Below are positions 18,754-45,329 of a DNA stretch of 52,682 nucleotides, piece after piece; position 1 is the stretch's first letter, and every line of letters begins with the position of its first letter. Under the pieces are notes generated by a model that saw nothing but the letters and a program-made list of their open reading frames with translations, ran no database searches and was not told the origin of the DNA. Source of the DNA: an uncultured Anaerolineae bacterium (GTDB lineage Bacteria; Chloroflexota; Anaerolineae; Anaerolineales; Villigracilaceae); the NCBI GenBank assembly GCA_937120535.1, contig CAKZJX010000024.1, positions 1 to 52,682 on the forward strand, written 5' to 3'. Position numbers and translations under genes: made by a program.

Positions 18754-18756
18754 TCC

Positions 18757-22504: not shown

Positions 22505-22529
22505 AGCTTTGCTCCAGGAGAGAAGAACA

Positions 22530-25060: not shown

Positions 25061-25101
25061 AGATCTTGCTGGGCAACCCCAAACGGTTTGAGTAAGGCGG
25101 A

Positions 25102-26978: not shown

Positions 26979-27218
26979 ATGGATGTCTTGAAGGAAGATC
27001 GTGTGTTGGATTGTTCTGGGTTGCTGTGCCCTCTGCCGGTGGTGAAAACCTCGAAGGCGATCAAGGAGTTAAGCGTCGGGCAGATTTTGAAGATGATCGC
27101 CACCGACCCCGGCGCTCCACCGGATATGGAGGCCTGGAGCCGGCAAACGGGTAACGAATTGTTGCTTTCGACGCAGGAGGATGGCAAGTTCGTGTTTTAC
27201 ATTCGTCGGACCAAATAG
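26979..27218 (+). CDS. tusA: Sulfur carrier protein TusA
   Basis: 79 residues of the TusA/SirA family. The persulfide-carrying Cys17 is in the signature CPLP (LDCSGLLCPLPVVKTSKAI), with a further Cys at 12. TusA moves sulfane sulfur between proteins in the cytoplasm and is a standard companion of sHdr and rDsr systems. ATG 26979 has a GAAAGGAGAG site. It is the first gene of an 18-gene co-directional cluster, and two DsrE-type proteins follow. Confidence 0.95.
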   Translation: MDVLKEDRVLDCSGLLCPLPVVKTSKAIKELSVGQILKMIATDPGAPPDMEAWSRQTGNELLLSTQEDGKFVFYIRRTK

Positions 27219-27289
27219 TGCGCGTGGTCCGTGACCACGGGCGCCACCGGGCCGGCTGATAACGTTTTTTGACCCATAAGGAGGTTGAG

Positions 27290-27814
27290 ATGGCAAAGTC
27301 GGATCCAAATGCTCCCAAGCGCCTGGCGATAATCGCCTCAAAAGGCACTTTGGATTGGGCTTATCCTCCCTTCATCCTGGGCACGGCAGCAGCTTCTATG
27401 GGATGGGATGTGGGGATTTTCTTCACGTTTTACGGCTTGACGCTGTTGCGTCCGAAGCTTACGGCCGCCATTTCGCCGCTGGGCAACCCGGCTATGCCGA
27501 TGAAGATGCCCTTCGGCCCGCCGGCTTTTCAGCAGATTAATTGGCCGATACCCCAGTTAATCATGGCCAACGTGCCTGGCTTCAATGCCTTAGCAACCAC
27601 CTTGATGAAACAGACCTTTGAAAACAAGGGCGTCGCCACCATCGAGGAGCTACGCAATATGGCTGTTGAGCTTGAGGTGCGCTTGATCGGTTGTCAGATG
27701 ACCATGGATGTGTTCGGCTTCAAGCGCGAGGACTTCATCCCTCAATGTGAGATCGGCGGTGCAGCGACGTTCTTGGAATACGCAGCCGACGCAGATGTCT
27801 CTTTGTTTGTCTGA
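27290..27814 (+). CDS. DsrE2-type sulfurtransferase/carrier
   Basis: 174 residues resembling the DsrE2 (DsrE/F/H-like) family. Two hydrophobic stretches (AYPPFILGTAAASMGWDVGI and the following FFTFYGLTLL) are typical and may associate with the membrane. Candidate sulfur-binding cysteines are Cys135 in LIGCQMTMDVFGF and Cys153 in PQCEIGGAA. DsrE2 often sits with tusA and hands sulfur to it or accepts it. ATG 27290 has AAGGAGG. Gap to tusA is 71 bases; the next DsrE gene follows after 32. Confidence 0.88.
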   Translation: MAKSDPNAPKRLAIIASKGTLDWAYPPFILGTAAASMGWDVGIFFTFYGLTLLRPKLTAAISPLGNPAMPMKMPFGPPAFQQINWPIPQLIMANVPGFNALATTLMKQTFENKGVATIEELRNMAVELEVRLIGCQMTMDVFGFKREDFIPQCEIGGAATFLEYAADADVSLFV

Positions 27815-27846
27815 GGCCGGGCCGGCGCCCCACGAAGGAGAACCGT

Positions 27847-28242
27847 ATGTGGAAAACCAACGATCCGGATGTCAAGCGCATTCTGTACGTTCAAACCCAC
27901 GGTGAGAAAGACCCCGAACGCACCGCTACGCCGTTTTTCTTGGCCACAGCCGCAGCTGCCATGGATCATGAGGTGGCGATTTACTTCACCATGAATGGGC
28001 CGCAGTGCCTGGCGAAGGGCAACGGCGAGAGGATCATCATCCCGCGCAAAGGCGGCGAGGGAAAGCCTCTGAAGTATTTCATTGACCAGGCCGTAGATAT
28101 GGGCGTGCGCTTGTTGGTCTGCCAACCGTCGCTGGACCTGCATGGCTATACCTTGGACGATCTGATCGAGGGGGTGGAGATGATCGGCGGGGCAGCGTTT
28201 AATGCCATAGCCTGCGAAGCGGATGCAGTGATCGCGTTCTGA
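27847..28242 (+). CDS. DsrE3-type sulfur carrier
   Basis: 131 residues of the DsrE superfamily. Features are KRILYVQTHGEKDPERTATP, the active-site-like Cys92 in LLVCQPSLDLHGY, and Cys54 and Cys123 (AIACEADAV). The last two thirds echo the preceding DsrE2 protein (both have a C-Q-x3-D-x-G/F-Y/F pattern followed by an IGGAA segment), so the two genes are distant paralogues. The role inferred from known sHdr loci is relay of sulfur between TusA and the lipoate-binding proteins. It lies 13 bases before sHdrC1. Confidence 0.85.
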   Translation: MWKTNDPDVKRILYVQTHGEKDPERTATPFFLATAAAAMDHEVAIYFTMNGPQCLAKGNGERIIIPRKGGEGKPLKYFIDQAVDMGVRLLVCQPSLDLHGYTLDDLIEGVEMIGGAAFNAIACEADAVIAF

Positions 28243-28255
28243 TCGAGGGGACGCT

Positions 28256-28963
28256 ATGCCTACAACGCTCGACACGTGGCATCCCGGCAAACCGGTCTCT
28301 AGACACCCTGATGTGCCGTATGAGGAGAAGCAGCGGTTGTTCCTGGAAGTCAAGAACGACCCACGTTACGAGGACTTTCTCTACGGTTGCTATGAGTGTG
28401 GGATTTGCGTTTCGGCCTGTCCTTCGGCGCGGTTTTACGACTTCAGCCCGCGGGTGATCGCCCAAGCCATGGCGCGCGAGGACGTGGAGCGGGTGTACGA
28501 CATTATCGCCGAGGACATCTGGAACTGCGCGCAGTGCTTCTCCTGTTTGCGGTGTCCACGAGGCAATAACCCGGGTGGGTTGGTCACCTTGCTACGGGAG
28601 GTGGCGGTGCGCAATGGCCTGCGCGAGACTCGCGACGTCTTGCAGGGCTATAGCCGCGTGATTTACAAGGTGATGCTCAAGGGCAATCAGGTCTCTCCCG
28701 ACATGTTGCAACCCGATTTCTTCCCCGATTGGGGACCCTGGGTGGCTCAGTTCTCGGCCAATATGGCGGTCTGGCGCAAAGCTATTCCGGTAGATACCTT
28801 GCGCGGCGTCACCGATGCGGCGTGGAAGACCGATCGCAAGACGTTGCTGGAGCTGTATACCATCTGGTTTGAGACCGGCAACATGGACATTATCAAGGAA
28901 GTGGACGAGGGGTTGTACGACCTCCTGATGGACGTTATGCAGGAAGAACTCGAAGAAGGGTAA
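28256..28963 (+). CDS. shdrC1: sHdrC1-like double [4Fe-4S] subunit
   Basis: 235 residues of the HdrC type. There are two four-cysteine motifs: Cys45, 48, 51, 55 in CYECGICVSACP and Cys91, 94, 97, 100 in CAQCFSCLRCP. The second has only two residues before its last Cys, where three are usual. The rest is helical with a tryptophan-rich C-terminus. It would wire electrons between the flavin subunit sHdrA and the CCG subunit sHdrB1 of a cytoplasmic complex. The C1-B1-A order is diagnostic of sHdr loci. Confidence 0.88.
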   Translation: MPTTLDTWHPGKPVSRHPDVPYEEKQRLFLEVKNDPRYEDFLYGCYECGICVSACPSARFYDFSPRVIAQAMAREDVERVYDIIAEDIWNCAQCFSCLRCPRGNNPGGLVTLLREVAVRNGLRETRDVLQGYSRVIYKVMLKGNQVSPDMLQPDFFPDWGPWVAQFSANMAVWRKAIPVDTLRGVTDAAWKTDRKTLLELYTIWFETGNMDIIKEVDEGLYDLLMDVMQEELEEG

Positions 28964-28986
28964 AGGTTTAGAGTGAGGAGCGACGT

Positions 28987-30189
28987 ATGACGACAGCCGT
29001 ACAGGATATTCTGGAACGCAAATCGCAGGCGGTGGCGCCCGACCCAAAGCGGGCACCCACCCACGATATTCGGGAGACGCTCTATGAGTTGGAAGCCAAG
29101 GGGGAGATCATTCTGCAGCGAGTGCCGGAACCTTTCGTGGAAGTGATCACTAAATATGGACGAACCAAACGTATCCCCATCGAACACACTTGGCATCATA
29201 AGTCGTGCGGTCAGTGTGGCCATATTCCAGGATACACCTCGTCGGTGTATTGGCTACATCGCCAGTTCAACCTGGATTTCCTTGACCCCACCGATCAGAC
29301 GTCCTGCACCGGTTGGAATTATTACGCTTCGGCTACCTCAAACGCTGTAGCTCAGGCCGCAGTGATGGTACGCAACTTTGCTGCTGCGTATGAGACCGGT
29401 TATTTCCCGCTCATTCACTGCGGCACGTCGTATGGGCATTATAAGGAGATTCGCGAGCAATTGGTCCATCACAAGAGCTTGCGCGATGAGGTGCGCCGGG
29501 TGTTGGACAAATTGGGTAAGCCTTTGGTGTTGCCCGAGGAGATCGTGCATTATAGCGAATGGGTGCACGTCATGCGCCATCGGATTGCCGAGCGGCAGCG
29601 GGTGGACTTGAGTATGCTCACCGCCACTGTGCATCCGGCTTGTCACTATTACAAGATCGTGGCCGAAGATGCGATTTATGATCCCGATATTTACGGTGGA
29701 CAGCGCACGGCCACGGTCACGGCCACCTTAGAGGCGTTGGGGATCCATGTGGCAGATTATTCTACGTGGTTCGACTGCTGTGGCTTTGGGTTTCGTCACA
29801 TCTTGGTGCAGCGCGATTTCACCCGTTCGTTTGCGGTCTTGCGCAAGATCGAGACCATGAAGCAGGAAGTCGATCCGGATTTGACGGTGACCCACGATAC
29901 CGGCTGCGTTACCACGTTGGACAAGAGTCAGTTTGCCGCTAAGGCCCACGAGCGCAAGGTGGGCATTCCGGTGCTTTCGGATGCGCAGGTGGCGGCCTTG
30001 GCGATGGGCGCCCATCCTTTCCGGGTGATCCAGTTCCATTGGCATTCCACGGATTGGCGCCCGCTGTTGGAGAAAATTGGCGTGGATTGGCGGAGGTATT
30101 GGGAGGAGTTTCAGGAGGACTTGGAGGCGATTCGCGCCGGCAAGAAGGCCGGCATCACCTGGCAAGAGGCCGATCAACCTGTTCTGTGA
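28987..30189 (+). CDS. shdrB1: sHdrB1-like CCG-domain catalytic subunit
   Basis: 400 residues of the HdrB family. The C-terminal CCG domain has the full cysteine set (HPACHYYK, FDCCGFGFRH, HDTGC), which in HdrB proteins binds a noncubane iron-sulfur cluster at a disulfide-handling site. The N-terminal half has a matching series (KSCGQCGH, DQTSCTGW, IHCGTSYGHYKE). In sHdr this subunit is thought to act on sulfur bound to LbpA. It lies 23 bases after sHdrC1 and 12 bases before sHdrA. Confidence 0.88.
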   Translation: MTTAVQDILERKSQAVAPDPKRAPTHDIRETLYELEAKGEIILQRVPEPFVEVITKYGRTKRIPIEHTWHHKSCGQCGHIPGYTSSVYWLHRQFNLDFLDPTDQTSCTGWNYYASATSNAVAQAAVMVRNFAAAYETGYFPLIHCGTSYGHYKEIREQLVHHKSLRDEVRRVLDKLGKPLVLPEEIVHYSEWVHVMRHRIAERQRVDLSMLTATVHPACHYYKIVAEDAIYDPDIYGGQRTATVTATLEALGIHVADYSTWFDCCGFGFRHILVQRDFTRSFAVLRKIETMKQEVDPDLTVTHDTGCVTTLDKSQFAAKAHERKVGIPVLSDAQVAALAMGAHPFRVIQFHWHSTDWRPLLEKIGVDWRRYWEEFQEDLEAIRAGKKAGITWQEADQPVL

Positions 30190-30201
30190 AGGAGAGCGTT
30201 C

Positions 30202-31263
30202 ATGGCTTCTGACAAAGTTTTGATCATCGGCGCCGGCCCAGCCGGCCTGGAGGCCGCCCGTTCGGTGGCCGAACTCGGCGGCGAGGCCATCCTACTGGAG
30301 CAGCGCGAGCGCCTGGGAGGAACCCCCGACCGCGAGCGGTACGCCAAACTCACCCATCATTGGCGCGACGCCTCGGACGTGATCGAGGAGATGATCCAGG
30401 CGGTGAGCAATAACCCGCGGATCGAGGTGAAGACTCAGGCCGAGATCAAGGCCTTCTCGGGCAGCGTGGGTAATTTCGAGGTCCAGCTGGAGGTCGATGG
30501 GGCGCCTGAAACGCTTCAGGTTGGCGCAGTGATCGTCGCTACCGGGTTTCAGCATTTCGATCCTGGACGGGCTACTCAGTCGTACAACTATTACACCTTC
30601 CCCGATGTGATCACGCTGACCGATTTGGAGAAGATGTTGCGCGAGCATAATGTGGTGCGGCCTTCTAACGGCCAACCGCCGAAGAAGGTGGCCTTTATTC
30701 AATGCGTGGGTTCGCGCGACCGCCGGCTAGGGAATGAGTATTGTTCAAAGGTGTGCTGCGGCGTGGCCAGCAAGCAGGCGATCGAGATCCGTCAGCAGTT
30801 GCCGGATGCCCGTGTGTTTATCTTTTACATTGATATGCGCATGTATGGCTATTGGGAGAACGAGATCTATTGGCCGGCCCAGGAGAAATACAAGGTCAAT
30901 TACGTGAAAGGGGTGATCAGCGAGATTTTGCAGAAGGGGGATCAGTTGTTGATCCGCGGCGAGGATACCACCATGGGCCGCCCGATGGAGGTGACCATGG
31001 ACTTGGTGGTGCTCTCGGTGGGCATGGAGCCGAGCGCTGGAACCCGCGCCGTCGCTCAGATGCTGGGGCTGCGCCAGAACCCGTATGGCTTTATCGAGGC
31101 CGGAGGTGCGGGTGGTGTGGACCCGGTGGCGACCTCGCGCGAAGGGGTGTTTGTGGCCGGCGCCGCTGCTGGGCCGGCTGACCTCAACGACTCGATCTCC
31201 AGCGCCGGCCTGGCGGCCGCTCGGGCGGTTGCTGTGGTGCGCAAAGCGTTGGCTCTCGTTTAG
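30202..31263 (+). CDS. shdrA: sHdrA-like FAD/Fe-S subunit
   Basis: 353 residues. An FAD-binding Rossmann fold starts at once (VLIIGAGPAGLEAARSVAEL). A cysteine group at 168, 181, 185 and 186 (CVGSRD ... EYCSKVCC) matches the [4Fe-4S] site of HdrA proteins, and the C-terminus carries a second FAD element (REGVFVAGAAAGPADLNDS). At this size it is the short sHdrA form and lacks the extra ferredoxin domains of methanogen HdrA. As the flavin hub it would take or split electrons. sHdrH begins 4 bases later. Confidence 0.9.
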   Translation: MASDKVLIIGAGPAGLEAARSVAELGGEAILLEQRERLGGTPDRERYAKLTHHWRDASDVIEEMIQAVSNNPRIEVKTQAEIKAFSGSVGNFEVQLEVDGAPETLQVGAVIVATGFQHFDPGRATQSYNYYTFPDVITLTDLEKMLREHNVVRPSNGQPPKKVAFIQCVGSRDRRLGNEYCSKVCCGVASKQAIEIRQQLPDARVFIFYIDMRMYGYWENEIYWPAQEKYKVNYVKGVISEILQKGDQLLIRGEDTTMGRPMEVTMDLVVLSVGMEPSAGTRAVAQMLGLRQNPYGFIEAGGAGGVDPVATSREGVFVAGAAAGPADLNDSISSAGLAAARAVAVVRKALALV

Positions 31264-31267
31264 GCCT

Positions 31268-32065
31268 ATGGCTCTCCCGCAGCGTCCCAGCCACATTATC
31301 AAGCCCAAAACCGGCCCAGATGACCCGGAGTTGCAGGCCGAATTGAACCAGGCCTTGGCCCAGGTGGCGTCGCAGGACGTGATCGCCATTGCTGATGAAT
31401 TGGCCGAACGCCACGAGCGACTCTTTCGCAGACTTCGGCAGGACGCTTCGGCCCTGGCCGCCTCTTGGCCCGAGATCGCTTCGGCCGTGACTCACACCCG
31501 GACTCACGCGCAGACCCTGAGGGACTATTTCGCCCAGCGCCATCTCGCCCCGCTCGAGCAGCTGCTCGGCGAGGATGGGCCGCCGGCCGAACGCCTGGCG
31601 CGCTTCGTGGAGCAGGTGCCCGACCTGGAGATCCGCCTGGCAGTGGAGCTGGCCAGCGGACTGCTGCACAATACCTTCCCTCAGGAGTGCTGGCTGTGGA
31701 CGCGTTGGTTGTGGGACCCTTCGGTGGGCACCGGGATCTTGCCGCTGTTGGCCGGCAGCACGCATAACCTGTGGGCCGCTGACTTGGCTGAGGGATACCG
31801 CCGGGTAGGCAAGGTGACGAGGCTGAGCGCCGCCTTCGGCGAGAGAACCGGCCTGCTTGGGCCGGAGTTGACCGGCGATGCCCGATGCGCCCCGTTCGCC
31901 CAAAGCGCTTTTCTGGCGTGTGCGTATTGCGTGTATCTGTATGGGGTGACCGGCTGGCGTTTGAGCCGCGAGTTTCACGCTCTCTTGCCGGCCCTGCCCG
32001 ATCTGGCCCGGCGGTTGCTAGGGCTGAGGAAACGCCCTGGAGCCGCCTCACCCCGCGCCGGGTAG
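31268..32065 (+). CDS. shdrH: sHdrH-like hypothetical protein of sHdr loci
   Basis: 265 residues, largely helical and rich in Leu, Ala and Arg, with no cysteine motif suggesting a metal site (scattered Cys at CWLW and ACAYC). The part DPSVGTGILPLLAGSTHNLW is the most domain-like. No enzyme family was recognised. By position directly after sHdrA it corresponds to the conserved 'Hyp' gene of sHdr operons. ATG 31268 is chosen because it immediately follows the sHdrA stop; the open frame upstream is within sHdrA. A 523-codon antisense frame here is a shadow. Confidence 0.72.
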   Translation: MALPQRPSHIIKPKTGPDDPELQAELNQALAQVASQDVIAIADELAERHERLFRRLRQDASALAASWPEIASAVTHTRTHAQTLRDYFAQRHLAPLEQLLGEDGPPAERLARFVEQVPDLEIRLAVELASGLLHNTFPQECWLWTRWLWDPSVGTGILPLLAGSTHNLWAADLAEGYRRVGKVTRLSAAFGERTGLLGPELTGDARCAPFAQSAFLACAYCVYLYGVTGWRLSREFHALLPALPDLARRLLGLRKRPGAASPRAG

Positions 32066-32183
32066 GTGGGAAGCGCCGCTCGGGGATGCCAGAGACGCCC
32101 AGCATGGGACCTCGCCCGAGAAGTTGATCTCGTTCGGCTGTGGAGCGATTTGCTGATTTTTGTATCGAGTAGGAGACACAAGG

Positions 32184-33491
32184 ATGACGATCCAGGAACA
32201 GAAAGCGGTGGTTGTCGAGAAGCAGCGGGTGGTAGTGGATGGCGTGGACATCTCGGGACATTGGAACCGGATGTTCGAACAGCGCACGATTTTTGAGTAT
32301 ACGCCGGAGCAGATTGAGGCGATTGCCTCGATCGCAGGTGCTGAGTCGTTTGCGTATTGTTATCAGTGCGCTAAGTGTGTGCCGGTGTGTCCGGTGGATG
32401 TGGTGGGGAATTATGGCCCGCGCAAGTTGTATCGCTATGCCCAGACCGGCGTGAATTTGATGGAGTCGCCTGAACTCTGGTTGTGCACGACGTGTGCCAA
32501 TTGTCTGCGGGTTTGCCCCAAGGAAGTGAATATGGTGGAGATTATGCCGGCGGTGCGCGAGCAGGCGATTTTGCAGGGGAAGTTTGTGCCGCCGGAATTG
32601 CAGCAGGCGTTCGAGAATACGGCTAAGACAGGCAACCCACTCGGTCAGCCTCAACGGAAGCGGGACGCATGGATCGCTAAGGCCGACGTGCCAGTGCCGA
32701 TCATCAAGGACTTGGGCCGGCCTGTGGAGGTGTTGTGGTATGTGGGGTCGTATCCGTCGTATCACCCGCGCGGCGTCGACGCCGCCTGCGCCGCGGCCCG
32801 CATTTTCACTGCCTTGGGGATCGATTTTGCCATCTTGGGCAAGGAGGAGAAGGACGACGCCGATTCGCAACGGTTGGCCGGCGAGAAGGGCTTGTTTGAG
32901 ATGTTAGCGGAGTATAACATTGCTACGTTCAACAAGTATGAGTGGAAGGAGATGGTGGTCACCGGCCCGCATGAGTTGAACGCTTTCAAGAATATTTATC
33001 CGCGCTATGGGTTCAATCGGCCGGTGGTGCACTACACGACTTTCTTGGTGCGATATTTGGATCAGCTCAAGCCGTTGCTCAAGCATCCGGTGCGCAAGCG
33101 GGTCACGTATCACGATCCGTGTTATTTGGGCCGGCACAACGGCGAGTATGAGGCGCCGCGCCTCTTGTTGCAGGCCATTCCGGGGCTAGAGCTGGTGGAG
33201 ATGGGGCGCAACCGCCAGAACGGGTATTGTTGTGGCGGAGGCGGCGGGGGCATGTGGATGGACTCGTTCACCGCCAAGCATACCCGAATGCGCCTTTCGG
33301 AGAAGCGCGCCATGGAGGCGGCGTCCACCGGCGCTGAGGTGTTGGCTGTGGCTTGTCCGTTTGAAGTGTCGCGCTTTGAAGATGCGATGAAGTCGACCGG
33401 CAACGAGCATGTGGGGGTGTTGGATATTTTGGAGCTGCTCGATCGTTCGATGCGGGGCGAGGAAGCGGCTGAACATCCTCAGCCCAGCTAG
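32184..33491 (+). CDS. shdrB3: sHdrB3-like fused HdrC-HdrB subunit
   Basis: 435 residues. The N-terminal HdrC-like part has two [4Fe-4S] motifs: Cys59, 62, 65, 69 (CYQCAKCVPVCP) and Cys101, 104, 107, 111 (CTTCANCLRVCP). The C-terminal part has two CCG-type repeats. In the second, Cys313 (DPCYLGRHNGEYEAPR) and Cys349/350 (YCCGGGGGG) are intact, but the final CxxC reads CPFE. The first repeat has lost its cysteines (VGSYPSY, VTGPHELNAFK). It is clearly paralogous to the soluble half of the membrane protein at 35275-37362. ATG 32184 has AGGAGA. A 118-base gap precedes it. Confidence 0.85.
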   Translation: MTIQEQKAVVVEKQRVVVDGVDISGHWNRMFEQRTIFEYTPEQIEAIASIAGAESFAYCYQCAKCVPVCPVDVVGNYGPRKLYRYAQTGVNLMESPELWLCTTCANCLRVCPKEVNMVEIMPAVREQAILQGKFVPPELQQAFENTAKTGNPLGQPQRKRDAWIAKADVPVPIIKDLGRPVEVLWYVGSYPSYHPRGVDAACAAARIFTALGIDFAILGKEEKDDADSQRLAGEKGLFEMLAEYNIATFNKYEWKEMVVTGPHELNAFKNIYPRYGFNRPVVHYTTFLVRYLDQLKPLLKHPVRKRVTYHDPCYLGRHNGEYEAPRLLLQAIPGLELVEMGRNRQNGYCCGGGGGGMWMDSFTAKHTRMRLSEKRAMEAASTGAEVLAVACPFEVSRFEDAMKSTGNEHVGVLDILELLDRSMRGEEAAEHPQPS

Positions 33492-33523
33492 ATTGGCGCT
33501 ATTCCATTTTGGAGGAGGAAACG

Positions 33524-34279
33524 ATGAACATTGTGGTCGTGCTCAAGCATATTCCCAGCGTGGCCGATGAGCTTCCTGTGCGGGGAAACCAGGTAGATTT
33601 TGATTCGGTGGATTTTGTTCTGAACGAGTGGGATGAGCAATCGCTGGAACAGGCGGCGTTGATCAAAGAAGCCCTAGGCGGCACTGTCACTGCGATTGGC
33701 GTGGATGTGATCGGGGAATTGGATAATCTGTTGCATCTGGCCCTGGCGAAGGGGGCCGATCGGGCGGTGAAGATCGCCGCCGACGATGCGGGGGCTGATT
33801 CGCATCGGCAGGCCAAGTGGTTGAGCGAGGCGATTAGACCAATGGCTCCTGACCTGGTGTTGGTGGGGGTGCAGGCTTCGAATGATATTGATGGGCAGCT
33901 CGGGCCGTTGTTGGCTGCGTATCTCGACCTGCCGTATATCGGCGTGGTGAGCTCTATCGAGGTGCAGGATGGCACAGCGTTGATGAATAAGGAGTTTGCC
34001 GGCGGATTCGGTGCGCGGTATTCGGTGAGGCTGCCTTTTGTGGCCGGCGTTCAAGTTGCGCCTAAGCCGCCGCGTTATGCGCCGGTCAGCAAGATCCGCC
34101 AGATCGCCCAGACGGCGAAGATTGAGGTCCTGGAACCAAGCGGCGAGGCCGATTCGGGCCTGGTCTTCCGCAAGGTGGCGCCGCCGGTGGTCAGCGGACA
34201 TGCGGAGATGATTGAGGGCTCGCCCAAGGAGATCGCCGCCCGTTTGGTGGCGCTGTTGAAAGAGCGTGGTTTGGCCTAG
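33524..34279 (+). CDS. etfB: Electron transfer flavoprotein beta subunit
   Basis: 251 residues of EtfB. MNIVVVLKHIPSVADE and DFVLNEWDEQSLEQAALIKE are typical, and the nucleotide-binding segment VLVGVQASNDIDGQLGPLLA is clear. With EtfA it forms a flavoprotein dimer carrying electrons between dehydrogenases and a quinone reductase. Lying between the sHdr subunits and a membrane CCG protein, it probably carries sHdr electrons to the membrane instead of serving beta-oxidation. ATG 33524 has a strong GGAGGAGG site. Confidence 0.94.
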   Translation: MNIVVVLKHIPSVADELPVRGNQVDFDSVDFVLNEWDEQSLEQAALIKEALGGTVTAIGVDVIGELDNLLHLALAKGADRAVKIAADDAGADSHRQAKWLSEAIRPMAPDLVLVGVQASNDIDGQLGPLLAAYLDLPYIGVVSSIEVQDGTALMNKEFAGGFGARYSVRLPFVAGVQVAPKPPRYAPVSKIRQIAQTAKIEVLEPSGEADSGLVFRKVAPPVVSGHAEMIEGSPKEIAARLVALLKERGLA

Positions 34280-34302
34280 AACGGTTCAATGGAGGTGCGG
34301 GC

Positions 34303-35250: not shown

Positions 35251-35274
35251 TCTCTCCAGACAAAGGAGGTTCTC

Positions 35275-37362: not shown

Positions 37363-37389
37363 GGCGTGTGTGGCGATGGATGAGCGGCG

Positions 37390-37689
37390 ATGACCGTCTG
37401 GACCTGTCCATATTGCGATGTGCAAGGCACGCGATCGGAAGTGCATTTGCACCTGGCCGAGCGCCATGGCGACCGCTTGGGCTTGCGGGTGGATGAATTC
37501 ACCGGCCACACGTTCTACGTCGTGATCTGTCCGCAATGCGGAGCGAGTTATGAACAGATCACCAAGAAAGCCCGCCGTGATCCGGCCTTTTTGGAAGAAT
37601 ATCAGCACGAAATTCGCATGGTGGTTTTCGACTTGCTGTTGTATCATTTGCAAGGGGAGCACGGACTCGGTTCGGGCGGCTCGGGTTGA
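37390..37689 (+). CDS. Small zinc-finger protein within the sHdr cluster
   Basis: 99 residues. The N-terminus is zinc-finger-like: CPYC followed by HLHLAERHGDR (Cys6, Cys9, then His pair). A second CPQC pair lies at about 48-51. The C-terminal half is helical with a Gly/Ser tail. No known family was recognised. It sits 27 bases after the EMO-like gene and 65 before the first lipoate-binding protein, so it is likely co-transcribed. It could be a structural or assembly factor, or a DNA- or RNA-binding regulator of the cluster. Confidence 0.65.
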   Translation: MTVWTCPYCDVQGTRSEVHLHLAERHGDRLGLRVDEFTGHTFYVVICPQCGASYEQITKKARRDPAFLEEYQHEIRMVVFDLLLYHLQGEHGLGSGGSG

Positions 37690-37754
37690 TGTTCTCGCTA
37701 TGGTAGGCGAACAGGCTAGCCCTAGCTCGTTAGATTTGCATCCTGGAGGAACCT

Positions 37755-38192
37755 ATGGCAATTGTGCGCGGTTGTACTATCCCTGAAGATCGCTACTACT
37801 GGGTGGAAAAGCATGTTTGGGCTTTGCCCGAGGCGGACGGCACGGTGAAGATCGGGATCACCGACGCGGCTCAGCGTCTAGCCAAGGGCATCGTCAATGC
37901 AACGCCGAAGGAAGCGGGACGAACGGTGCAGAAGGGCAAATCGGTCGGGACGTTGGAGAGCGGCAAGTGGGTCGGGCCGGTCACGTCTCCGATCAGCGGG
38001 GAGATCGTGGAGGTCAACGAAGTAATGAAGGCCAATCCCTCGCTCATCAACTCCGATCCCTACGGTCAGGGCTGGTTTGTGCGCATTCGGCCCAGCGACT
38101 GGGCCGGCGAGAGCGCCACCTTGCTGACCGGTGAAGCAGCGGTGGAGGCCTATCGGAAGGTGATGGAAGAACAGAACCTCAACTTTGAGTGA
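37755..38192 (+). CDS. lbpA: Lipoate-binding protein, GcvH-like (first LbpA)
   Basis: 145 residues of the GcvH fold. The lipoyl lysine is Lys71 in GTLESGKWVGPV, with the surrounding PVTSPISGEIVEVNE and SDPYGQGWFVRIRP conserved. The glycine cleavage H protein normally has ESVKA at this place; the SGKW/SAKW form is the one seen in the sHdr-associated LbpA proteins. There is no glycine cleavage gene (gcvT, gcvP) in the window. It would carry sulfur intermediates on dihydrolipoate. ATG 37755 follows a GGAGGAAC site. Confidence 0.88.
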   Translation: MAIVRGCTIPEDRYYWVEKHVWALPEADGTVKIGITDAAQRLAKGIVNATPKEAGRTVQKGKSVGTLESGKWVGPVTSPISGEIVEVNEVMKANPSLINSDPYGQGWFVRIRPSDWAGESATLLTGEAAVEAYRKVMEEQNLNFE

Positions 38193-38218
38193 TCGTCTCC
38201 TAGAAAGTCCGTTTGGCC

Positions 38219-38662
38219 ATGATCTATTACGGCTGCGACATCCCTGAAGATCTGTACTACGATGTGGAGCGTGATGTATGGATTCGCTTCGAGGGGGAGA
38301 TCGCCACTCTTGGAATGACCGATGTGGCCCAGACGCGCTGTGGCAAGATCGCTGCCATCCGCTTTCGGCCGGTAGGCAAGCAGGTGGCCCAGGGCAAGGC
38401 CCTAGCGACGATCGAATCGGCCAAGTGGGTTGGGCCTTTTCCGGCCCCCTTTGCGTGTGAGATTGTGGAGACCAACGAGGCGGCCTTTGAGAAGGACATC
38501 CTGATCGCCAACAAGGAGCCCTATAGCCAGGGATGGCTCGTTCGGGTTCGTCTGCTCAACCCAGAAGAGTGTCGCCATTTGGTCACCGGAGCATCAGCGG
38601 TGGCGGCCTATCGCGCGCGAATTGAAGCGCTGCAGGTGCGTTGTTTTCGTTGTGTAGAATGA
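38219..38662 (+). CDS. lbpA: Lipoate-binding protein, GcvH-like (second LbpA)
   Basis: 147 residues, a diverged tandem paralogue of the preceding gene. Shared are the GCDIPEDLYYD start, the lipoyl site Lys69 in ATIESAKWVGPF and NKEPYSQGWLVRVR. The first protein has GCTIPEDRYYW at the same point. An extra Cys (Cys41) and a CFRC tail are unlike the first copy. ATG 38219 was used; TTG 38213 in frame is possible. Two different carriers may serve two sulfur states or two partners. The ligase follows after 20 bases. Confidence 0.86.
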   Translation: MIYYGCDIPEDLYYDVERDVWIRFEGEIATLGMTDVAQTRCGKIAAIRFRPVGKQVAQGKALATIESAKWVGPFPAPFACEIVETNEAAFEKDILIANKEPYSQGWLVRVRLLNPEECRHLVTGASAVAAYRARIEALQVRCFRCVE

Positions 38663-38682
38663 CATTTCCTTATGGAGGAACT

Positions 38683-39768
38683 ATGGTGCGTGCTATTCGT
38701 ATGATCTACCTAGAAGGCGTTTCCCCGCTTCGCTCACAGACGATGTATCATGCTGTGGGCTATGCCATGAAGCCGGATACGCCTAACACCATCCTGCTGG
38801 TCTCGCCGAATGCGCCGTATGTGTGCATTGGCTATCATCAAGACCTGCAGAAAGAGGTGGATGTGGACTACTGCGCTGCCCACGGCTTGCCGGTGTACCG
38901 GCGCGAAGTCGGAGGGGGCGCCGTGTACCTGGACTCGGGCCAGTTGTTTACCCAGTGGATCTTCCATCGGGAAGACCTGCCGGTCTCGTTGGAGGACCGC
39001 TTCCGGCTCTACATTGACCCGATCGTGCAAACCTATCGCGCTTTGGGGATCGATGCCAATTATCGCCCGGTCAACGACATCCACGTCCAGGGCAAGAAGA
39101 TCGGCGGGACCGGCGCGGCCCAGATGGGAATAGCTGAGGTGTTGGTGGGCAGCTTGATGTTCACCTTCGATAAGAAAACCATGGCTCGAGTGCTCAAGGT
39201 GGCCTCGGAAAAAATGCGCGACAAAATCTTCGAGTCGCTCGAAGCCTATATGACCACCATGACCGAGCAGCTAGGCTATCTCCCCGATCGGACGATGGTC
39301 AAAGACCTGTACTTGCAGAAAGTATCCGAAGCGCTGGATGCCGAGATCGTCCCAGGCGAGTGGACAGCCGAAGAAGAGGCCATGGCTCAGGAGTTGGACG
39401 CTCGCTTTGTCTCCGAAGAGTGGTTGTATCAGAAGGGACGATTGCAGCCGCCGGCGGTGAAGATCCATGAAGATGTTTATCTGGTCGAATCGGCCTTCAA
39501 GGCGCCGGGGGGATTAATCCGCGTGGTGGCTCGCTTACACCGTGGGCGGATCGACGACCTCTCCTTCTCAGGCGACTTCACGTTGTTGCCGGCCTTTGCC
39601 CTGGGCGCCTTGGAGCAGGCGCTGCGCGGACAGGCCGCAACCCCCGAAACCTTGAAGAGTCGCATCGAGGAAGCCTACCAGCGCCTCCAGATTCAGTCGC
39701 CCGGCATGACTCCTAGCGATCTGGCAACCGCTGTCCTGAATGCTGTTGCCTCGTCGCCCTCGGCGTGA
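38683..39768 (+). CDS. Lipoate-protein ligase of the sHdr type (LplA plus C-terminal domain)
   Basis: 361 residues. The catalytic domain shows YRREVGGGAVYLDSGQLFTQ, the substrate-lysine region NDIHVQGKKIGGTGAAQ, and the C-terminal accessory domain (VESAFKAPGGLIRVVARLHR onwards) that contributes the small domain of LplA. Such ligases attach lipoate or octanoate to the lysine of LbpA, and dedicated sLpl copies are a known component of sHdr loci. The radical-SAM lipoyl synthases (LipS1/LipS2) that complete assembly in some of these organisms were not seen in this window. ATG 38683 has GGAGGAAC. Confidence 0.88.
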   Translation: MVRAIRMIYLEGVSPLRSQTMYHAVGYAMKPDTPNTILLVSPNAPYVCIGYHQDLQKEVDVDYCAAHGLPVYRREVGGGAVYLDSGQLFTQWIFHREDLPVSLEDRFRLYIDPIVQTYRALGIDANYRPVNDIHVQGKKIGGTGAAQMGIAEVLVGSLMFTFDKKTMARVLKVASEKMRDKIFESLEAYMTTMTEQLGYLPDRTMVKDLYLQKVSEALDAEIVPGEWTAEEEAMAQELDARFVSEEWLYQKGRLQPPAVKIHEDVYLVESAFKAPGGLIRVVARLHRGRIDDLSFSGDFTLLPAFALGALEQALRGQAATPETLKSRIEEAYQRLQIQSPGMTPSDLATAVLNAVASSPSA

Positions 39769-39792
39769 TCTGAGTGAGGGGAGGAGGGCAGG

Positions 39793-40620
39793 GTGTTTTC
39801 ACCGCAATTCTTGCATGGCAAATTGGCTTTGGTCACCGGCGCTTCGCGGGGGATCGGGAGGGGCATCGCCCTGGCCTTGGCCGAGGCCGGCGCCGATGTG
39901 ATCGTTCACTACGCTCGCAAAACCAGCTTGGCTCAAGAGGTGGTGGCCGAGATCGAGCGCCTCGGACGCCGCGCCTGGGCCCTGCGCGCCAACCTGGCCG
40001 ATCCCGAAAAGACCAACGCCATGTTGGACGAAGTGGAACGCACCTGGGGCGGATGTGATATTTTCGTGGCCAACGCCGCCAGTGGCGGGTTCCGTCCTAT
40101 CCTGGCTACCGAGGATAAGCACTGGGATTGGACGATGGAGGTCAACGCCCGGTCCATCCTGCGTTGCGTCCGGCGCCTGACGCCGTGGATGGAACGCCGC
40201 GGTTGGGGGCGCATCATCCCCATCACCAGCATCGGCGGGCAGCGCGTCTTGCCGAATTATGGGATCGTGGGCCTGTCCAAGGCCGTGGTGGATGCGCTCA
40301 CCCGTTACCTGGCTGTCGAACTGGCCCCCAAAGGCATTCGGGTGAATGCTGTCTCGCCGGGCGTGGTCGAGACCGATGTGTTGAACCAGATCGGCAAGGA
40401 TGTGCCGTCGCTGCTTGAGCATCTTCTACAGCGCACGCCGGCCCGGCGCTTGGTCACCCCGCGCCATGTCGGTCAGGTGGTGGTGTTCCTGTGCTCGGAG
40501 GCAGCCGACCTGATCGTCGGGCAGGTCCTTCAGGTGGATGGTGGGTACGGTTTGGTGATGGACGATGGCGGGGTGTCCGATCAAGCGAGGGCGTGGCTGG
40601 CCGGCGATTCGTCGCCCTGA
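39793..40620 (+). CDS. FabL-like enoyl-ACP reductase (SDR)
   Basis: 275 residues. The Rossmann start is LALVTGASRGIGRGIALALA. The catalytic pair is Tyr156 and Lys163 spaced by six (PNYGIVGLSKAVVDALTRYL), the Tyr-x6-Lys pattern of enoyl-ACP reductases and not the usual Tyr-x3-Lys of other SDRs. RYLAVELAPKGIRVNAVSPG and the Asp/Gly end (VLQVDGGYGLV) recall Bacillus FabL. It lies 24 bases after the lipoate-protein ligase. A role in making the octanoyl precursor, or an unrelated SDR use, are both possible. Start is GTG 39793 with GAGGAGGG. Confidence 0.78.
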   Translation: MFSPQFLHGKLALVTGASRGIGRGIALALAEAGADVIVHYARKTSLAQEVVAEIERLGRRAWALRANLADPEKTNAMLDEVERTWGGCDIFVANAASGGFRPILATEDKHWDWTMEVNARSILRCVRRLTPWMERRGWGRIIPITSIGGQRVLPNYGIVGLSKAVVDALTRYLAVELAPKGIRVNAVSPGVVETDVLNQIGKDVPSLLEHLLQRTPARRLVTPRHVGQVVVFLCSEAADLIVGQVLQVDGGYGLVMDDGGVSDQARAWLAGDSSP

Positions 40621-40665
40621 GCGCTTCTTCGACCGCGCAACTTCTATCGGTAGTTAGGTGTCGTT

Positions 40666-42336
<1,671 letters not shown>

Positions 42337-42365
42337 CCCCTTATCGATCAGGAAAGGAGTCCACG

Positions 42366-45329
42366 ATGACCGATCGCCCTTCCATCCCTCCCACCTCTGC
42401 TGGCCTCTCCCTGCCACACTTCTCATTGAGCGCTCGCCCTCCCATCCAACTCACCGAAGTCGTCCATCCCGATGGGCGCATCAGCCAATACCCCCCGCCC
42501 GAATATTGGGACGACTGGGTGGAGTGGGATGGCAAAGAATGGCCCAAGCGCGTCCCTCGGCGCTACACCCTGGTCCCGACGGTGTGCTTCAACTGCGAAG
42601 CTGCCTGTGGCTTGCTGGCCTACGTGGACAAAGAAACCTTCGAGATCCGCAAATTCGAGGGCAACCCGGTGCATCCTGGCAGTCGCGGCCGCAACTGCGC
42701 CAAAGGGCCGGCCACCCACAACCAAGTCTACGATCCTGAGCGCATCCTCTACCCTCTCAAACGGGTGGGCAAGCGCGGCGAGGGCAAATGGCAACGCATC
42801 TCCTGGGAGCAGGCCCTCGACGAAATTGCCGCCAAAATGCGCCAGAGCAAACTGCGCCGTCCGAACGGCATCGTCTACCACGTAGGACGCCCGGGCGAAG
42901 ATGGCTATACCAACCGCGTGGTCCAAACCTGGGGCATGGACGGCCACAACAGCCACACCAACGTCTGCTCCTCCTCTGCCCGGGCCGGCTACAACTTCTG
43001 GAGCGGCCAAGACCGTCCTAGCCCCGATCACGCCAACGCCCGTGTCATTCTGCTGGTCTCCAGCCACCTCGAAACTGGCCACTACTTCAATCCCCACGCC
43101 CAACGCATTATCGAAGCCAAGAGTCGCGGCGCCACCCTGATCACCCTCGACCCGCGTCTATCCAATACTGCTTCCATGAGCAACATCTGGCTGCCTACCT
43201 ATCCCGGCAGCGAGACGGTGGTCCTGCTGGCCATAGCCAACTACCTGATCCAAAACGACCTCTACGATAAAGAATTCATCCGCCGCTGGGTGAATTGGAA
43301 GGAGACGCTTCACGCCGTTGCCCGAGGCTGGTTGCCCCTGAAGGACGCTTCTCTCGCCGAACGCATCTCTGCCCACCTCGCTTCCTCACCAGACCCTGGG
43401 CCGGCCTCCTCGTCCCTCGACCTCTTCCCCCTCTTCGACGCCCTGCTCAAGGACCTCTATGCCGAGTACACCCTAGAGCGCGCCGCCCGTGAGTCCGAAG
43501 TCCCCCTCGATCGCCTCCAAGAAGCCGCTCGTGCCGTGGCCGACTGCGATCACAAACTGGCCACTCACGTCTGGCGTAGCGCCAGCGTGGGCAACCTTGG
43601 AGGCTGGCAGGTAGCGCGCTGCTTGTTCTTTCTGAACGTCCTGACCGGCAGCGTCGGAACGCGCGGCGGCACCTCCCTCACCAACTGGAACAAATTCGTC
43701 CCCAAACCGTTCAAAGGCGCCCCCTCGCCCGAAACCTGGAACGAACTACACTACCCAATCGAATATCCCCTGGCCCACTACGAAATGTCCTTCCTCCTGC
43801 CTCACCTGTTGGAGGAAGGCCGCGGTGAGATCGACGTATACTTTACCCGTGTCTACAACCCGCTCTGGGTGAACCCTGACGGCTTCATGTGGCTGAAGAT
43901 CCTCACCCGCGACGACTCGCCCATCAAGTGCTACGTGGCCCTCACCCCCACCTGGAACGAGACTGCCTGGTTTGCCGACTATGTTCTCCCCATGGGCCAC
44001 GGCCCAGAGCGCCATGACCTGATGAGCCAAGAAACCCATTCCGGCCAGTGGATCGCCTTTCGACAGCCGGTCCGTCGCGTCGCCATGGAGCGCAGCGGCA
44101 TCAAGGTGGACTTCACCTATCAAGCCAATCCGGGCGAAGTGTGGGAAGAAAATGAATTCTGGATCCAGCTTTCGGCTCGCATGGACCCCGACGGGTCGCT
44201 GGGCATCCGTCAATGGTTCGAGTCGCCCTACCGACCAGGCGAGATCATCACCGTTGAAGAATACTACCGCTGGATCTTCGAAAACTCAGTTCCTGGCCTG
44301 CCCGAAGCCGCCGCCAAGGAAGGGCTTACCCCCCTGGACTACATGCGCAAATACGGCGTGTTCGAGATCCGCCGCGAAAACTATCTGCCCTATGCCAAGC
44401 CCATCGGCCAGCCCGAAGACTACCAGGTCGACGAGTTCGATCGCGCTTGGAAGGATGGTCAGGTTGTTGGTCTGGTGGTGGACGGCGCCGTGCGCCCCGG
44501 GTTCGACACCCCGAGCAAGAAACTGGAATTTTTCAGCGAAACGCTCTACCTATGGGGATGGTCGGAGCGGGAATACACTATTCCTTGGTCGCTCAAGAGC
44601 CACGTTCATCCGGAGCATGTGGATCGTGCTAAGGGCGAGATGATCCTGCTGCCCAACTTCCGTTTGCCTACCCTGATCCACACCCGCTCGGCCAACGCCA
44701 AATGGCTATATGAGATCTCCCACAAGAACCCGGTCTGGATCCATCCTCACGACGCTAAGCGGATCGGCGTCGAAACCGGTGACCTGGTGCGAGTGGAGAC
44801 CGAGATCGGCTACTTTGTGGATTCCGTCTGGGTGACGGAGGCCATCAAGCCCGGCATGGTGGCTGTCAGTCATCACCTGGGGCGCTGGCGCTTGCAAGAA
44901 CAGGCCGGCGTGAATCGCGGCGCCTCCAGCTTGGTGAAGATCGATGAAGATGGCTCGGGGCGTTACCATCTGCGCGTCCTGCATGGCGCCACGGCCTGGA
45001 CCTCAGGCGATCCGGATACTGCGCGCATCTGGTGGACCAACGTCGGCGTGAACCAAAACCTGGCCCACGCCGTTCATCCGGATCCGGTGAGTGGCGTACA
45101 CTGCTGGCTACAAAAAGTAGTGGTTCGCCAGGCTGAGCCGGGCGACCGGGCCGGCGACGTGTTTGCCGATACCAACAAGTCCATGGAAGTCTATCGCCAA
45201 TGGCTAGCCCTAACGCGACCGGCCCATCGCTTCAGCCCAGATGGCACCCGCCGGCCCTATTGGCTGAGCCGGCCGCTCAAGCCGACTCGCGCCGCCTATC
45301 AATTGCCGCAACCAGCAGAGGGGACATGA
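42366..45329 (+). CDS. soeA: Molybdopterin oxidoreductase, SoeA-like sulfite dehydrogenase
   Basis: 987 residues of the complex iron-sulfur molybdoenzyme family. The N-terminal [4Fe-4S] ligands are Cys74, 77, 81 and 111. The likely Mo ligand is Cys201 in SHTNVCSSSARAGYNF, and LITLDPRLSNTASMSNIW is typical. No Tat signal is present, so the enzyme stays in the cytoplasm. That, and its place after sHdr, fits SoeA, which oxidises sulfite to sulfate, better than periplasmic polysulfide or thiosulfate reductase. The C-terminal domain (VWIHPHDAKRIGVETGDLVR) is of the usual type. ATG 42366 has GGAAAGGAG. Substrate is inferred from context. Confidence 0.82.
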   Translation: MTDRPSIPPTSAGLSLPHFSLSARPPIQLTEVVHPDGRISQYPPPEYWDDWVEWDGKEWPKRVPRRYTLVPTVCFNCEAACGLLAYVDKETFEIRKFEGNPVHPGSRGRNCAKGPATHNQVYDPERILYPLKRVGKRGEGKWQRISWEQALDEIAAKMRQSKLRRPNGIVYHVGRPGEDGYTNRVVQTWGMDGHNSHTNVCSSSARAGYNFWSGQDRPSPDHANARVILLVSSHLETGHYFNPHAQRIIEAKSRGATLITLDPRLSNTASMSNIWLPTYPGSETVVLLAIANYLIQNDLYDKEFIRRWVNWKETLHAVARGWLPLKDASLAERISAHLASSPDPGPASSSLDLFPLFDALLKDLYAEYTLERAARESEVPLDRLQEAARAVADCDHKLATHVWRSASVGNLGGWQVARCLFFLNVLTGSVGTRGGTSLTNWNKFVPKPFKGAPSPETWNELHYPIEYPLAHYEMSFLLPHLLEEGRGEIDVYFTRVYNPLWVNPDGFMWLKILTRDDSPIKCYVALTPTWNETAWFADYVLPMGHGPERHDLMSQETHSGQWIAFRQPVRRVAMERSGIKVDFTYQANPGEVWEENEFWIQLSARMDPDGSLGIRQWFESPYRPGEIITVEEYYRWIFENSVPGLPEAAAKEGLTPLDYMRKYGVFEIRRENYLPYAKPIGQPEDYQVDEFDRAWKDGQVVGLVVDGAVRPGFDTPSKKLEFFSETLYLWGWSEREYTIPWSLKSHVHPEHVDRAKGEMILLPNFRLPTLIHTRSANAKWLYEISHKNPVWIHPHDAKRIGVETGDLVRVETEIGYFVDSVWVTEAIKPGMVAVSHHLGRWRLQEQAGVNRGASSLVKIDEDGSGRYHLRVLHGATAWTSGDPDTARIWWTNVGVNQNLAHAVHPDPVSGVHCWLQKVVVRQAEPGDRAGDVFADTNKSMEVYRQWLALTRPAHRFSPDGTRRPYWLSRPLKPTRAAYQLPQPAEGT

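What the first reader, a model, noticed from the sequence alone, without database searches (positions are those of the whole stretch)
26979..45329. Near-complete Etf-linked sHdr sulfur-oxidation locus with its own sulfite dehydrogenase
Eighteen co-directional genes join sulfur carriers (TusA, two DsrE types), sHdrC1-B1-A-H, a fused C2-B2 subunit, EtfBA, an EMO-like membrane protein, two LbpA, a lipoate ligase and a SoeA/SoeBC-like pair. Gene content and order are visible in the sequence. That sHdr oxidises LbpA-bound sulfur to sulfite is established for related systems. The full route from sulfane sulfur to sulfate with all electrons going to quinone, and its presence in a probable Chloroflexota, is my inference.
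Basis: partly seen in the sequence, partly recalled or inferred. Interest (0 to 1): 0.85.

Follow-up and report, generated by a model that had tools for sequence, protein, structure and literature searches.

The report
Sulfur-oxidation locus with linked sulfite oxidase
A Chloroflexota bacterium carries in one stretch of DNA the genes to take sulfur atoms to sulfite and probably on to sulfate; the first half of this kit is already known, while the second half looks like an enzyme branch with fused parts for which I found no published assay.

Summary
In detail: 18 co-directional genes at 26979-45329. The core is the published 'type II sHdr' arrangement, and a 19-gene relative in the Chloroflexota Thermomicrobium roseum was published in 2019 (PMC6776052, passages); that part is known. 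Less expected is the last pair: an FeS-NrfD fusion (40666) and a molybdoenzyme without visible export signal (42366). Its clade stands apart from PhsA, TtrA, DmsA and an Arx-like enzyme; its anchor is fused in 64 of 80 loci and split in none; it is in 22 of 25 sHdr genomes against 41 of 375 others; elsewhere it often lies near persulfide-dioxygenase-like genes (24 of 76 loci). One relative without it has Sat-AprBA genes upstream of sHdrB1, though three others carry both. Best reading: a quinone-linked sulfite dehydrogenase that works like SoeABC, with a fused anchor. No SoeA could be placed in the tree and no activity is shown. A 99-residue zinc-type protein (37390) tracks the locus (23 of its 24 genomes have sHdrB1) and has no PDB fold match at E 0.001.

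The parts
24374..26835 (-). Divergent two-component pair: GAF/HisKA_3 histidine kinase (25102-26835) and LuxR-type response regulator (24374-25060); candidate regulator of the locus
   Evidence: Pfam; kinase 56-68% and regulator 64-77% identical (one match over 53 residues only) upstream of tusA in 10 of 10 same-family loci with that region held; weaker in G397 and G391
26979..27218 (+). tusA, sulfur carrier (CPLP motif)
   Evidence: PF01206 80 bits; CPxP in 27 of 27 aligned relatives
27290..27814 (+). DsrE_2-type sulfur carrier
   Evidence: PF13686 161 bits; GCQ in 13 of 20 aligned relatives
27847..28242 (+). DsrE-type sulfur carrier
   Evidence: PF02635 68 bits; VCQ in 21 of 23 aligned relatives
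28256..28963 (+). sHdrC1
   Evidence: 4Fe-4S Pfam; NCBIfam HdrC 73 bits, cut-off 350
28987..30189 (+). sHdrB1, proposed catalytic subunit
   Evidence: CCG domain; NCBIfam HdrB 116 bits, cut-off 450; in 25 of 400 phylum genomes after dropping G336
30202..31263 (+). sHdrA flavoprotein
   Evidence: 6tjr 293 bits full length against at most 223 bits for methanogen-type HdrA; CVGSRD...CSKVCC, pattern in 24 of 25 aligned relatives
31268..32065 (+). sHdrH by position
   Evidence: No Pfam match above cut-off, no NCBIfam match, no credible PDB relative; conserved in synteny
32184..33491 (+). sHdrB3 (fused C2-B2)
   Evidence: Fer4 + CCG; CCG motif in 29 of 29 aligned relatives
33524..34279 (+). etfB
   Evidence: PF01012
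34303..35250 (+). etfA
   Evidence: PF00766 + PF01012
35275..37362 (+). Emo-like membrane Fe-S/CCG protein, proposed ETF:quinone oxidoreductase
37390..37689 (+). 99-residue zinc-type protein (zn99) tied to type II sHdr in this phylum
   Evidence: 24 of 400 phylum genomes: 23 B1-positive, the 24th (G064) cut by a contig end; invariant C6, C9, H21, H26, C47, C50, H86 in 21 rows; AF2 pLDDT 88; no PDB fold at E<=0.001
37755..38192 (+). lbpA1, lipoyl carrier (ESGK)
   Evidence: PF01597; lysine motif in 26 of 26 aligned relatives
38219..38662 (+). lbpA2 (ESAK)
   Evidence: PF01597; lysine motif in 24 of 25 aligned relatives
38683..39768 (+). Lipoate:protein ligase with LplA-type and LplB-type domains
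   Evidence: PF21948; PF10437 just under its cut-off; NCBIfam LplB 53 bits, cut-off 65; GKK motif in 11 of 19 aligned relatives, which include other ligase types
39793..40620 (+). Short-chain dehydrogenase, role unknown
   Evidence: PF13561; also in the G311 locus, not seen in the same-family loci
40666..42336 (+). moBC: multi-cluster Fe-S domain fused to an NrfD membrane anchor
   Evidence: PF13247 + PF03916; fused in 64 of 80 relatives' loci, split in 0
42366..45329 (+). moA: molybdopterin enzyme without visible export signal, proposed sulfite dehydrogenase
   Evidence: PF04879, PF00384, PF01568; N-terminus; own clade; context
45360..46418 (+). DUF2270/DUF2179 membrane protein, candidate extra member
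   Evidence: Pfam; downstream of moA in 11 relatives' loci, in some about 2 kb away

Best explanation
This is a type II sHdr sulfane-sulfur oxidation locus of a Chloroflexota bacterium with its own terminal sulfite oxidase. TusA and DsrE proteins pass sulfane sulfur to lipoylated LbpA. sHdrC1B1AHB3 oxidises the bound sulfur to sulfite in the cytoplasm. Electrons go to EtfBA and through the Emo-like protein to quinone. The molybdoenzyme moA, held at the inner face of the membrane by a fused Fe-S/NrfD anchor, oxidises sulfite to sulfate and also delivers its electrons to quinone. Shown here: gene content, order, conservation, clade, lack of a visible export signal, co-occurrence and gene contexts. 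Established elsewhere: sulfite formation by the sHdr-LbpA pathway in Hyphomicrobium denitrificans (PMC10332631, passages). Inferred: every reaction in this organism, the substrate of moA, its side of the membrane and the electron routes.
For: Complete type II gene set in one cluster by the published definition. sHdrA is nearest to 6tjr (recalled as Hyphomicrobium sHdrA). moA is in 22 of 25 B1-positive and 41 of 375 other phylum genomes (one-sided Fisher p 1e-16, uncorrected for kinship). On the moA tree, sHdr co-location needs at least 5 changes and gene arrangements differ between families, so the link probably arose repeatedly. Away from sHdr, moA lies within 5 kb of PDO-like genes in 24 of 76 loci, SulP in 18, SQR in 7; behind DsrE-TusA in Rhodococcus jostii; behind rhodanese and a TauE/SafE sulfite exporter gene in 2 of 3 haloarchaeal regions viewed. 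In G135, which lacks moA, partial Sat, AprB, AprA and Qmo-like genes precede sHdrB1. moA or aprA is present in 23 of 25 sHdr genomes. The window's genome has no AprA match.
Against: I found no reported activity for any member of the moA clade. No SoeA reference could be placed in the tree. Two of 25 sHdr genomes, G028 and G179, have neither moA nor aprA, and 3 of the 4 aprA genomes (G231, G339, G391) carry moA as well, so simple replacement is seen once only. 41 of the 63 moA genomes show no B1 (one of them, G064, because its contig starts inside hdrH), so moA is not specific to sHdr. Neighbour enrichment near against far is moderate: PDO-like 24 against 4 (p 0.002), SQR 7 against 0 (p 0.02), SulP 18 against 6 (p 0.07), any sulfur gene 35 against 13 loci (p 0.03), and the seed genes were chosen among frequent neighbours of the same loci. 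T. roseum and Natrinema halophilum show no annotated sulfur-oxidation gene beside the pair. No SoxB match, and a type III SQR query found nothing (no positive control), so the source of sulfane sulfur is unknown.
Confidence: 0.72

Rival explanations
1. The core is a type II sHdr system, but moA acts on another sulfur compound (thiosulfate, polysulfide or tetrathionate), or as a reductase, rather than on sulfite.
For: The best solved relative is 2vpw, listed as thiosulfate reductase (147 bits), and the best NCBIfam match is PhsA (208 bits, cut-off 694). moA occurs in many genomes without sHdr.
Against: The twin-arginine pattern was absent from 85 of 86 clade rows and present in PhsA, DmsA, the Arx-like and the Rhodobacter protein, with a near match in TtrA. 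The clade stands apart from these in the tree. Neighbours include sulfite-producing or sulfur-handling genes. AprBA-Sat genes occupy the locus in a genome lacking moA.
Confidence: 0.18
2. The sHdr complex oxidises cellular or organic thiols to disulfides for maintenance energy, as suggested for T. roseum, and does not make sulfite; moA is an unrelated neighbour.
For: The T. roseum 19-gene cluster is raised 45-fold on average during persistence, and its authors proposed thiol oxidation (PMC6776052, passages). In T. roseum moA is on the megaplasmid, with no annotated sHdr gene within 20 kb.
Against: LbpA, lipoate ligase and sulfurtransferases match the sulfite-forming Hyphomicrobium pathway (PMC10332631, passages). 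moA or AprA co-occurs in 23 of 25 sHdr genomes.
Confidence: 0.1

Closest known systems
Type II sHdr-LbpA system (shdrC1B1AHB3 + etfAB), PMC11582611 (passages read)
   Same: Every named gene present in one co-directional cluster, with TusA, DsrE, LbpA and lipoate ligase
   Different: Adds the fused-anchor molybdoenzyme, a 99-residue zinc-type protein and a divergent two-component system; the regulator known from Hyphomicrobium, sHdrR, is an ArsR-type repressor (abstract of PMC12423496 in the listing)
Thermomicrobium roseum trd_0160-0142 cluster, PMC6776052 (passages read)
   Same: Chloroflexota; hdr, etfAB, tusA, two dsrE and three lbpA in a 19-gene cluster
   Different: Its moA homologue (TRD_RS12030, 60% identical) lies on the megaplasmid
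Sulfobacillus hdr cluster II, PMC4378227 (passages read)
   Same: hdr genes with etfAB and a membrane Fe-S/CCG protein
   Different: Its SoeABC-like enzymes are described as three-subunit gene operons
SoeABC sulfite dehydrogenase (PMC5114278 and PMC8076601, passages read)
   Same: Molybdoenzyme with N-terminal Fe-S site on the cytoplasmic side, Fe-S protein, NrfD-like anchor, quinone as proposed acceptor
   Different: Here the Fe-S and anchor subunits are one polypeptide and precede the catalytic subunit; relation to SoeA by tree not tested
Sat-AprBA-Qmo sulfite oxidation
   Same: Lies in the sHdr locus of relative G135, which lacks moA, and presumably meets the same need
   Different: Unrelated enzymes; no AprA match in the window's genome; 3 of 4 aprA genomes also have moA

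Membership tests
Type II sHdr | shdrC1, B1, A, H, B3 and etfAB in one syntenic cluster | tested here: met
   definition read; H by position only
Type II sHdr | sHdrA closer to a characterised sHdrA than to methanogen HdrA | tested here: met
   293 bits to 6tjr against 223 bits or less to methanogen-type HdrA; a bit-score test, not a tree; the identity of 6tjr as Hyphomicrobium sHdrA is recalled
Type II sHdr | Linked lipoate-binding protein with lipoylable lysine and a lipoate ligase | tested here: met
   modification itself not tested
Type II sHdr | Oxidation of bound sulfane sulfur to sulfite | not testable with these tools
   Needs growth or enzyme assay
SoeABC | Cytoplasmic molybdoprotein with N-terminal Fe-S cluster site | tested here: met
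   PF04879; no twin-arginine motif or hydrophobic leader in the window protein; location itself not measured
SoeABC | Separate iron-sulfur (SoeB) and NrfD-like (SoeC) subunits | tested here: not met
   One fused polypeptide; fused in 64 of 80 relatives, split in 0, 11 at contig ends, 5 not found nearby
SoeABC | Catalytic subunit in one clade with characterised SoeA | not tested
SoeABC | Sulfite:quinone oxidoreductase activity | not testable with these tools
   Context only
Phs/Psr/Ttr/Dms reductases | Exported (twin-arginine) catalytic subunit within these clades | tested here: not met
   (PhsA, TtrA, DmsA in the tree, PsrA not); the long outgroup branches make deeper order unsure

The most novel reading that the evidence does not exclude
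moBC-moA belongs to a widespread, so far uncharacterised clade of cytoplasmic quinone-linked sulfite dehydrogenases with a fused Fe-S/NrfD anchor. It spans Chloroflexota, Bacteroidota, Myxococcota, Acidobacteriota, Actinomycetota, Planctomycetota and haloarchaea. It was recruited repeatedly as the terminal sulfite oxidase of unrelated sulfite producers (sHdr, persulfide dioxygenases, probably rhodanese systems) and can be replaced by Sat-AprBA-Qmo in the sHdr locus (seen once; three other genomes carry both). The 99-residue zinc-type protein would be a near-obligate, undescribed part and genomic marker of this Chloroflexota sHdr type.
Probability: 0.5. Interest if true: 0.65.

Novelty: new variant of a known kind. 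Interest (0 to 1): 0.5.

Why it matters
Hyphomicrobium denitrificans, running the sHdr-LbpA pathway, excretes toxic sulfite (PMC10332631), and in what I could read nothing tells what removes sulfite in type II organisms. A linked, recurrent candidate, with Sat-AprBA in its place in one relative, makes the complete route to sulfate testable. Relatives of the candidate exist in cultured bacteria, one of them Rhodococcus jostii RHA1. [quoted passage not shown] the zinc-type protein is a possible marker in this phylum.

Tried and rejected
Considered and rejected. (1) Methanogen-type or reductive Hdr: NCBIfam and PDB scores speak against it. (2) moA as DMSO, thiosulfate or tetrathionate reductase or Arx-type enzyme: tree and N-termini speak against it. 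(3) G064 as a genome with moA but no sHdr: its contig starts inside hdrH. (4) The Caballeronia molybdoenzyme as a SoeA reference: it is formate dehydrogenase.

Led nowhere: a SoeA reference for the tree; a fold relative of the zinc-type protein; type III SQR in the own genome (no positive control there). HMSS2 models for sHdr types were not at hand, so sHdrA and sHdrB3 were not placed in trees.

Limits of single tests. The neighbour seeds were picked among the frequent neighbours in the same loci; the near/far comparison is the only control. The count of changes used 33 of the 45 clade rows (14 with sHdr close by, 19 without); 12 rows, mostly with a short flank on at least one side, were left out by eye. 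The export-signal check read the first 60 residues of mechanically chosen starts, so a leader behind a false start could be missed. The sequence motifs counted are recalled patterns.

Rows dropped: G336 (two HdrB-like hits at 29-31% identity) from the sHdr count; 4 of 80 loci without a called moA ORF; 3 of 24 zinc-protein loci (L148, L153, L157, one stop inside the matched span) from the alignment; the Sulfurovum moA homologue, which lies in two frames, from the tree.
Full report
Observation. sHdrH is named by position, and the 99-residue protein at 37390 matches no family above cut-off. Expected residues are in place in the window proteins: TusA CPxP, HdrC cysteines, HdrA and CCG motifs, LbpA lysine. 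The patterns are recalled; in relatives most hold nearly throughout, but the DsrE_2 pattern in only 13 of 20 and the ligase pattern in 11 of 19.

Origin. The window is contig C24 of a 3.1 Mb genome, 98% complete. G352, in the same phylum, has the coordinates of Ktedonosporobacter rubrisoli NZ_CP035758; G126 matches Bacterium HR28 and G316 an uncultured Thermomicrobiaceae MAG. The phylum is therefore Chloroflexota in the wide sense that includes Thermomicrobia.

Known core. Published work defines type II sHdr as shdrC1B1AHB3 plus etfAB in one syntenic cluster (PMC11582611, passages). This locus meets that. Sulfobacillus hdr cluster II with etfAB and a membrane Fe-S/CCG protein was described in 2014 (PMC4378227, passages). 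A 19-gene cluster with hdrABC, etfAB, tusA, two dsrE and three lbpA in T. roseum was reported in 2019, raised 45-fold on average during persistence (PMC6776052, passages). A 2026 paper used T. roseum genes to guide its search and reported Hdr-like genes in Chloroflexaceae MAGs, with caution (PMC13384644, passages). So sHdr-Etf-LbpA genes in Chloroflexota are not new.

Is it sHdr? sHdrA matches PDB 6tjr at 293 bits over residues 6-347; methanogen-type HdrA chains score 170-223 bits, best over residues within 94-346. The listing names 6tjr only as a flavoprotein domain protein; that it is Hyphomicrobium denitrificans sHdrA is recalled. sHdrB1 scores at most 50 bits against methanogen-type HdrB chains. 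NCBIfam HdrA2, HdrB and HdrC models score 271, 116 and 73 bits against cut-offs of 1100, 450 and 350.

Distribution in the phylum. In 400 phylum genomes, B1 was found in 26; I dropped G336, whose hits were 29-31% identical, leaving 25. The molybdoenzyme moA was found in 63 of 400 and in 22 of the 25; G028, G135 and G179 lack it. One-sided Fisher p is 1e-16, uncorrected for kinship. G064 counts as B1-negative only because its contig starts inside hdrH. From the coordinates I count at least 14 of 25 with moA and sHdr-locus genes close on one contig. The arrangement differs: downstream of the ligase (same family, G311, G316), divergent upstream of tusA (G243, G339), or upstream of the sHdr genes in the same direction (G061, G246, G174).

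The molybdoenzyme clade. The one scan of genome contigs found 582 relatives among 591 pattern matches (limit reached) and kept 80, from Chloroflexota, Bacteroidota, Rhodothermota, Myxococcota, Acidobacteriota, Calditrichota, KSB1, Planctomycetota, Gemmatimonadota and others (groups also). Plasmid records add T. roseum (60% identity), Rhodococcus jostii (55%) and haloarchaea (50-52%). In a 50-row quick tree the 45 clade rows are separated with SH-aLRT 100 from an Arx-like protein, PhsA, TtrA, DmsA and a Rhodobacter enzyme; the outgroup branches are long and the program warns about them. The anchor is fused in 64 of 80 loci and split in none; 11 lie at contig ends and in 5 none was found nearby. 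The twin-arginine pattern was absent from 85 of 86 clade rows; L192 matched the bare pattern without a hydrophobic stretch. Of eight comparison proteins, PhsA, DmsA, the Arx-like and the Rhodobacter one matched it, and TtrA shows a near match.

Context as evidence of substrate. In the 76 of 80 loci with a called moA, within 5 kb: PDO-like MBL or MBL-rhodanese genes in 24, SulP in 18, SQR in 7, TusA in 4; any sulfur gene in 35 near against 13 at 5-10 kb (599 against 424 kb of sequence) (names of representatives). Enrichment is clear for PDO-like genes (24 against 4, p 0.002) and weak for SulP (p 0.07), and the seeds came from the frequent neighbours of the same loci. That PDO makes sulfite is recalled family knowledge; that these MBL proteins are PDOs is inferred from domains, best for the type scoring 369 bits to the Blh sulfur dioxygenase model, still under its cut-off of 625. 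R. jostii pRHL3 has DsrE-TusA-FeS/NrfD-moA-Mrp with MBL genes nearby. Natrinema caseinilyticum and Halomicrococcus have rhodanese and TauE/SafE genes before the pair; Natrinema halophilum does not. In T. roseum no annotated sulfur-oxidation gene stands beside moA within 20 kb; the pair follows a regulator annotated as metal-sensitive.

AprA. AprA is over cut-off in 4 of 25 sHdr genomes: G135, G231, G339, G391. In G135, which lacks moA, Sat (partial, at the edge of the stretch), AprB, AprA, two HdrA-like proteins in QmoA and QmoB positions and an HdrCB-like protein lie directly upstream of sHdrB1. The other three carry moA as well, so replacement is seen once. moA or AprA is present in 23 of 25; G028 and G179 have neither. 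The window's genome has no AprA match, no SoxB match, has LipA, and gave no hit to a type III SQR query.

Repeated association. sHdrB1 is also in 11 of 50 named moA genomes, among them Bacteroidota OFTM201, a Myxococcales MAG, KSB1 and Acidobacteriota OFTM26 (given 50 of the 80 loci). Scoring co-location on the moA tree needs at least 5 changes. Repeated gain is the simplest reading, because arrangements differ; repeated loss is not excluded.

The 99-residue protein. zn99 is found in 24 of 400 phylum genomes: 23 are among the 25 B1 genomes and the 24th is G064. Of the two B1 genomes without it, G397's contig ends just after emo and G231 has lbpA directly after emo. Seventeen columns are invariant in 21 rows, including C6, C9, H21, H26, C47, C50 and H86. 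AlphaFold2 gives pLDDT 88; Foldseek finds no PDB match at E 0.001 or better. Zinc binding is inferred from these residues and from weak zinc-finger matches under cut-off; an adaptor or maturation role is a guess. It was not seen in the Myxococcales locus L182.

Flanks. A kinase/regulator pair is conserved upstream in the family, unlike the ArsR-type sHdrR of Hyphomicrobium (abstract in the listing). DUF2270 lies downstream of moA in 11 relatives' loci. In G311 and G080, genes resembling lipS1/lipS2 by position stand beside the ligase where the window has only a ligase; of two tested, one gave a radical-SAM match just under cut-off and one none.

Mechanism. TusA/DsrE to LbpA to sHdr gives sulfite; EtfBA and the Emo-like protein take electrons to quinone; moBC-moA takes sulfite to sulfate and its electrons to quinone. 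Only the parts list and its conservation are shown here; reactions are inferred from the related systems named.

Novelty. Ten paper searches and passages of eleven papers gave no account of a fused-anchor sulfite dehydrogenase clade or of the zinc-type protein. Papers outside the library and all supplements were out of reach, so this is weak. I rate the whole a new variant of a known kind.

Noticed in passing
window 24374-26835 (-): Divergent GAF histidine kinase and LuxR-type regulator conserved upstream of tusA in 10 of 10 same-family loci held; candidate sulfur-responsive regulator unlike sHdrR.
   Followed up: partly
window 45360-46418 (+): DUF2270/DUF2179 membrane protein lies downstream of moA in 11 relatives' loci.
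   Followed up: partly
L071 14-7383 (G135): Sat (partial)-AprBA-QmoAB-like-HdrCB-like genes directly upstream of sHdrB1 in a Chloroflexota genome without moA.
   Followed up: yes
L056/L057 (G311) and L062/L092 (G080): Genes resembling lipS1/lipS2 by position beside the ligase in relatives (one weak radical-SAM match); the window has a ligase only and a LipA elsewhere (C93).
   Followed up: partly
L105 (Rhodococcus jostii pRHL3) 5615-11971: DsrE-TusA-FeS/NrfD fusion-moA-Mrp gene row in a cultured strain.
   Followed up: partly
L104 (T. roseum megaplasmid) 18084-22835: moA pair behind a gene annotated as metal-sensitive regulator; could be a persulfide-responsive CsoR-like protein (recalled possibility, untested).
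   Followed up: no
L082 (G000:C27) 903-1619: A second TusA and DsrE_2-like pair elsewhere in the window's genome.
   Followed up: no
L109 8001-11157 (Sulfurovum mangrovi plasmid): moA homologue (pieces 45% and 34% identical) lying in two frames and not annotated, beside a separate NrfD gene.
   Followed up: no
G028 (L063, L091): Full sHdr locus with zinc-type protein but neither moA nor AprA found in a 99% complete genome; its sulfite route is unknown.
   Followed up: no
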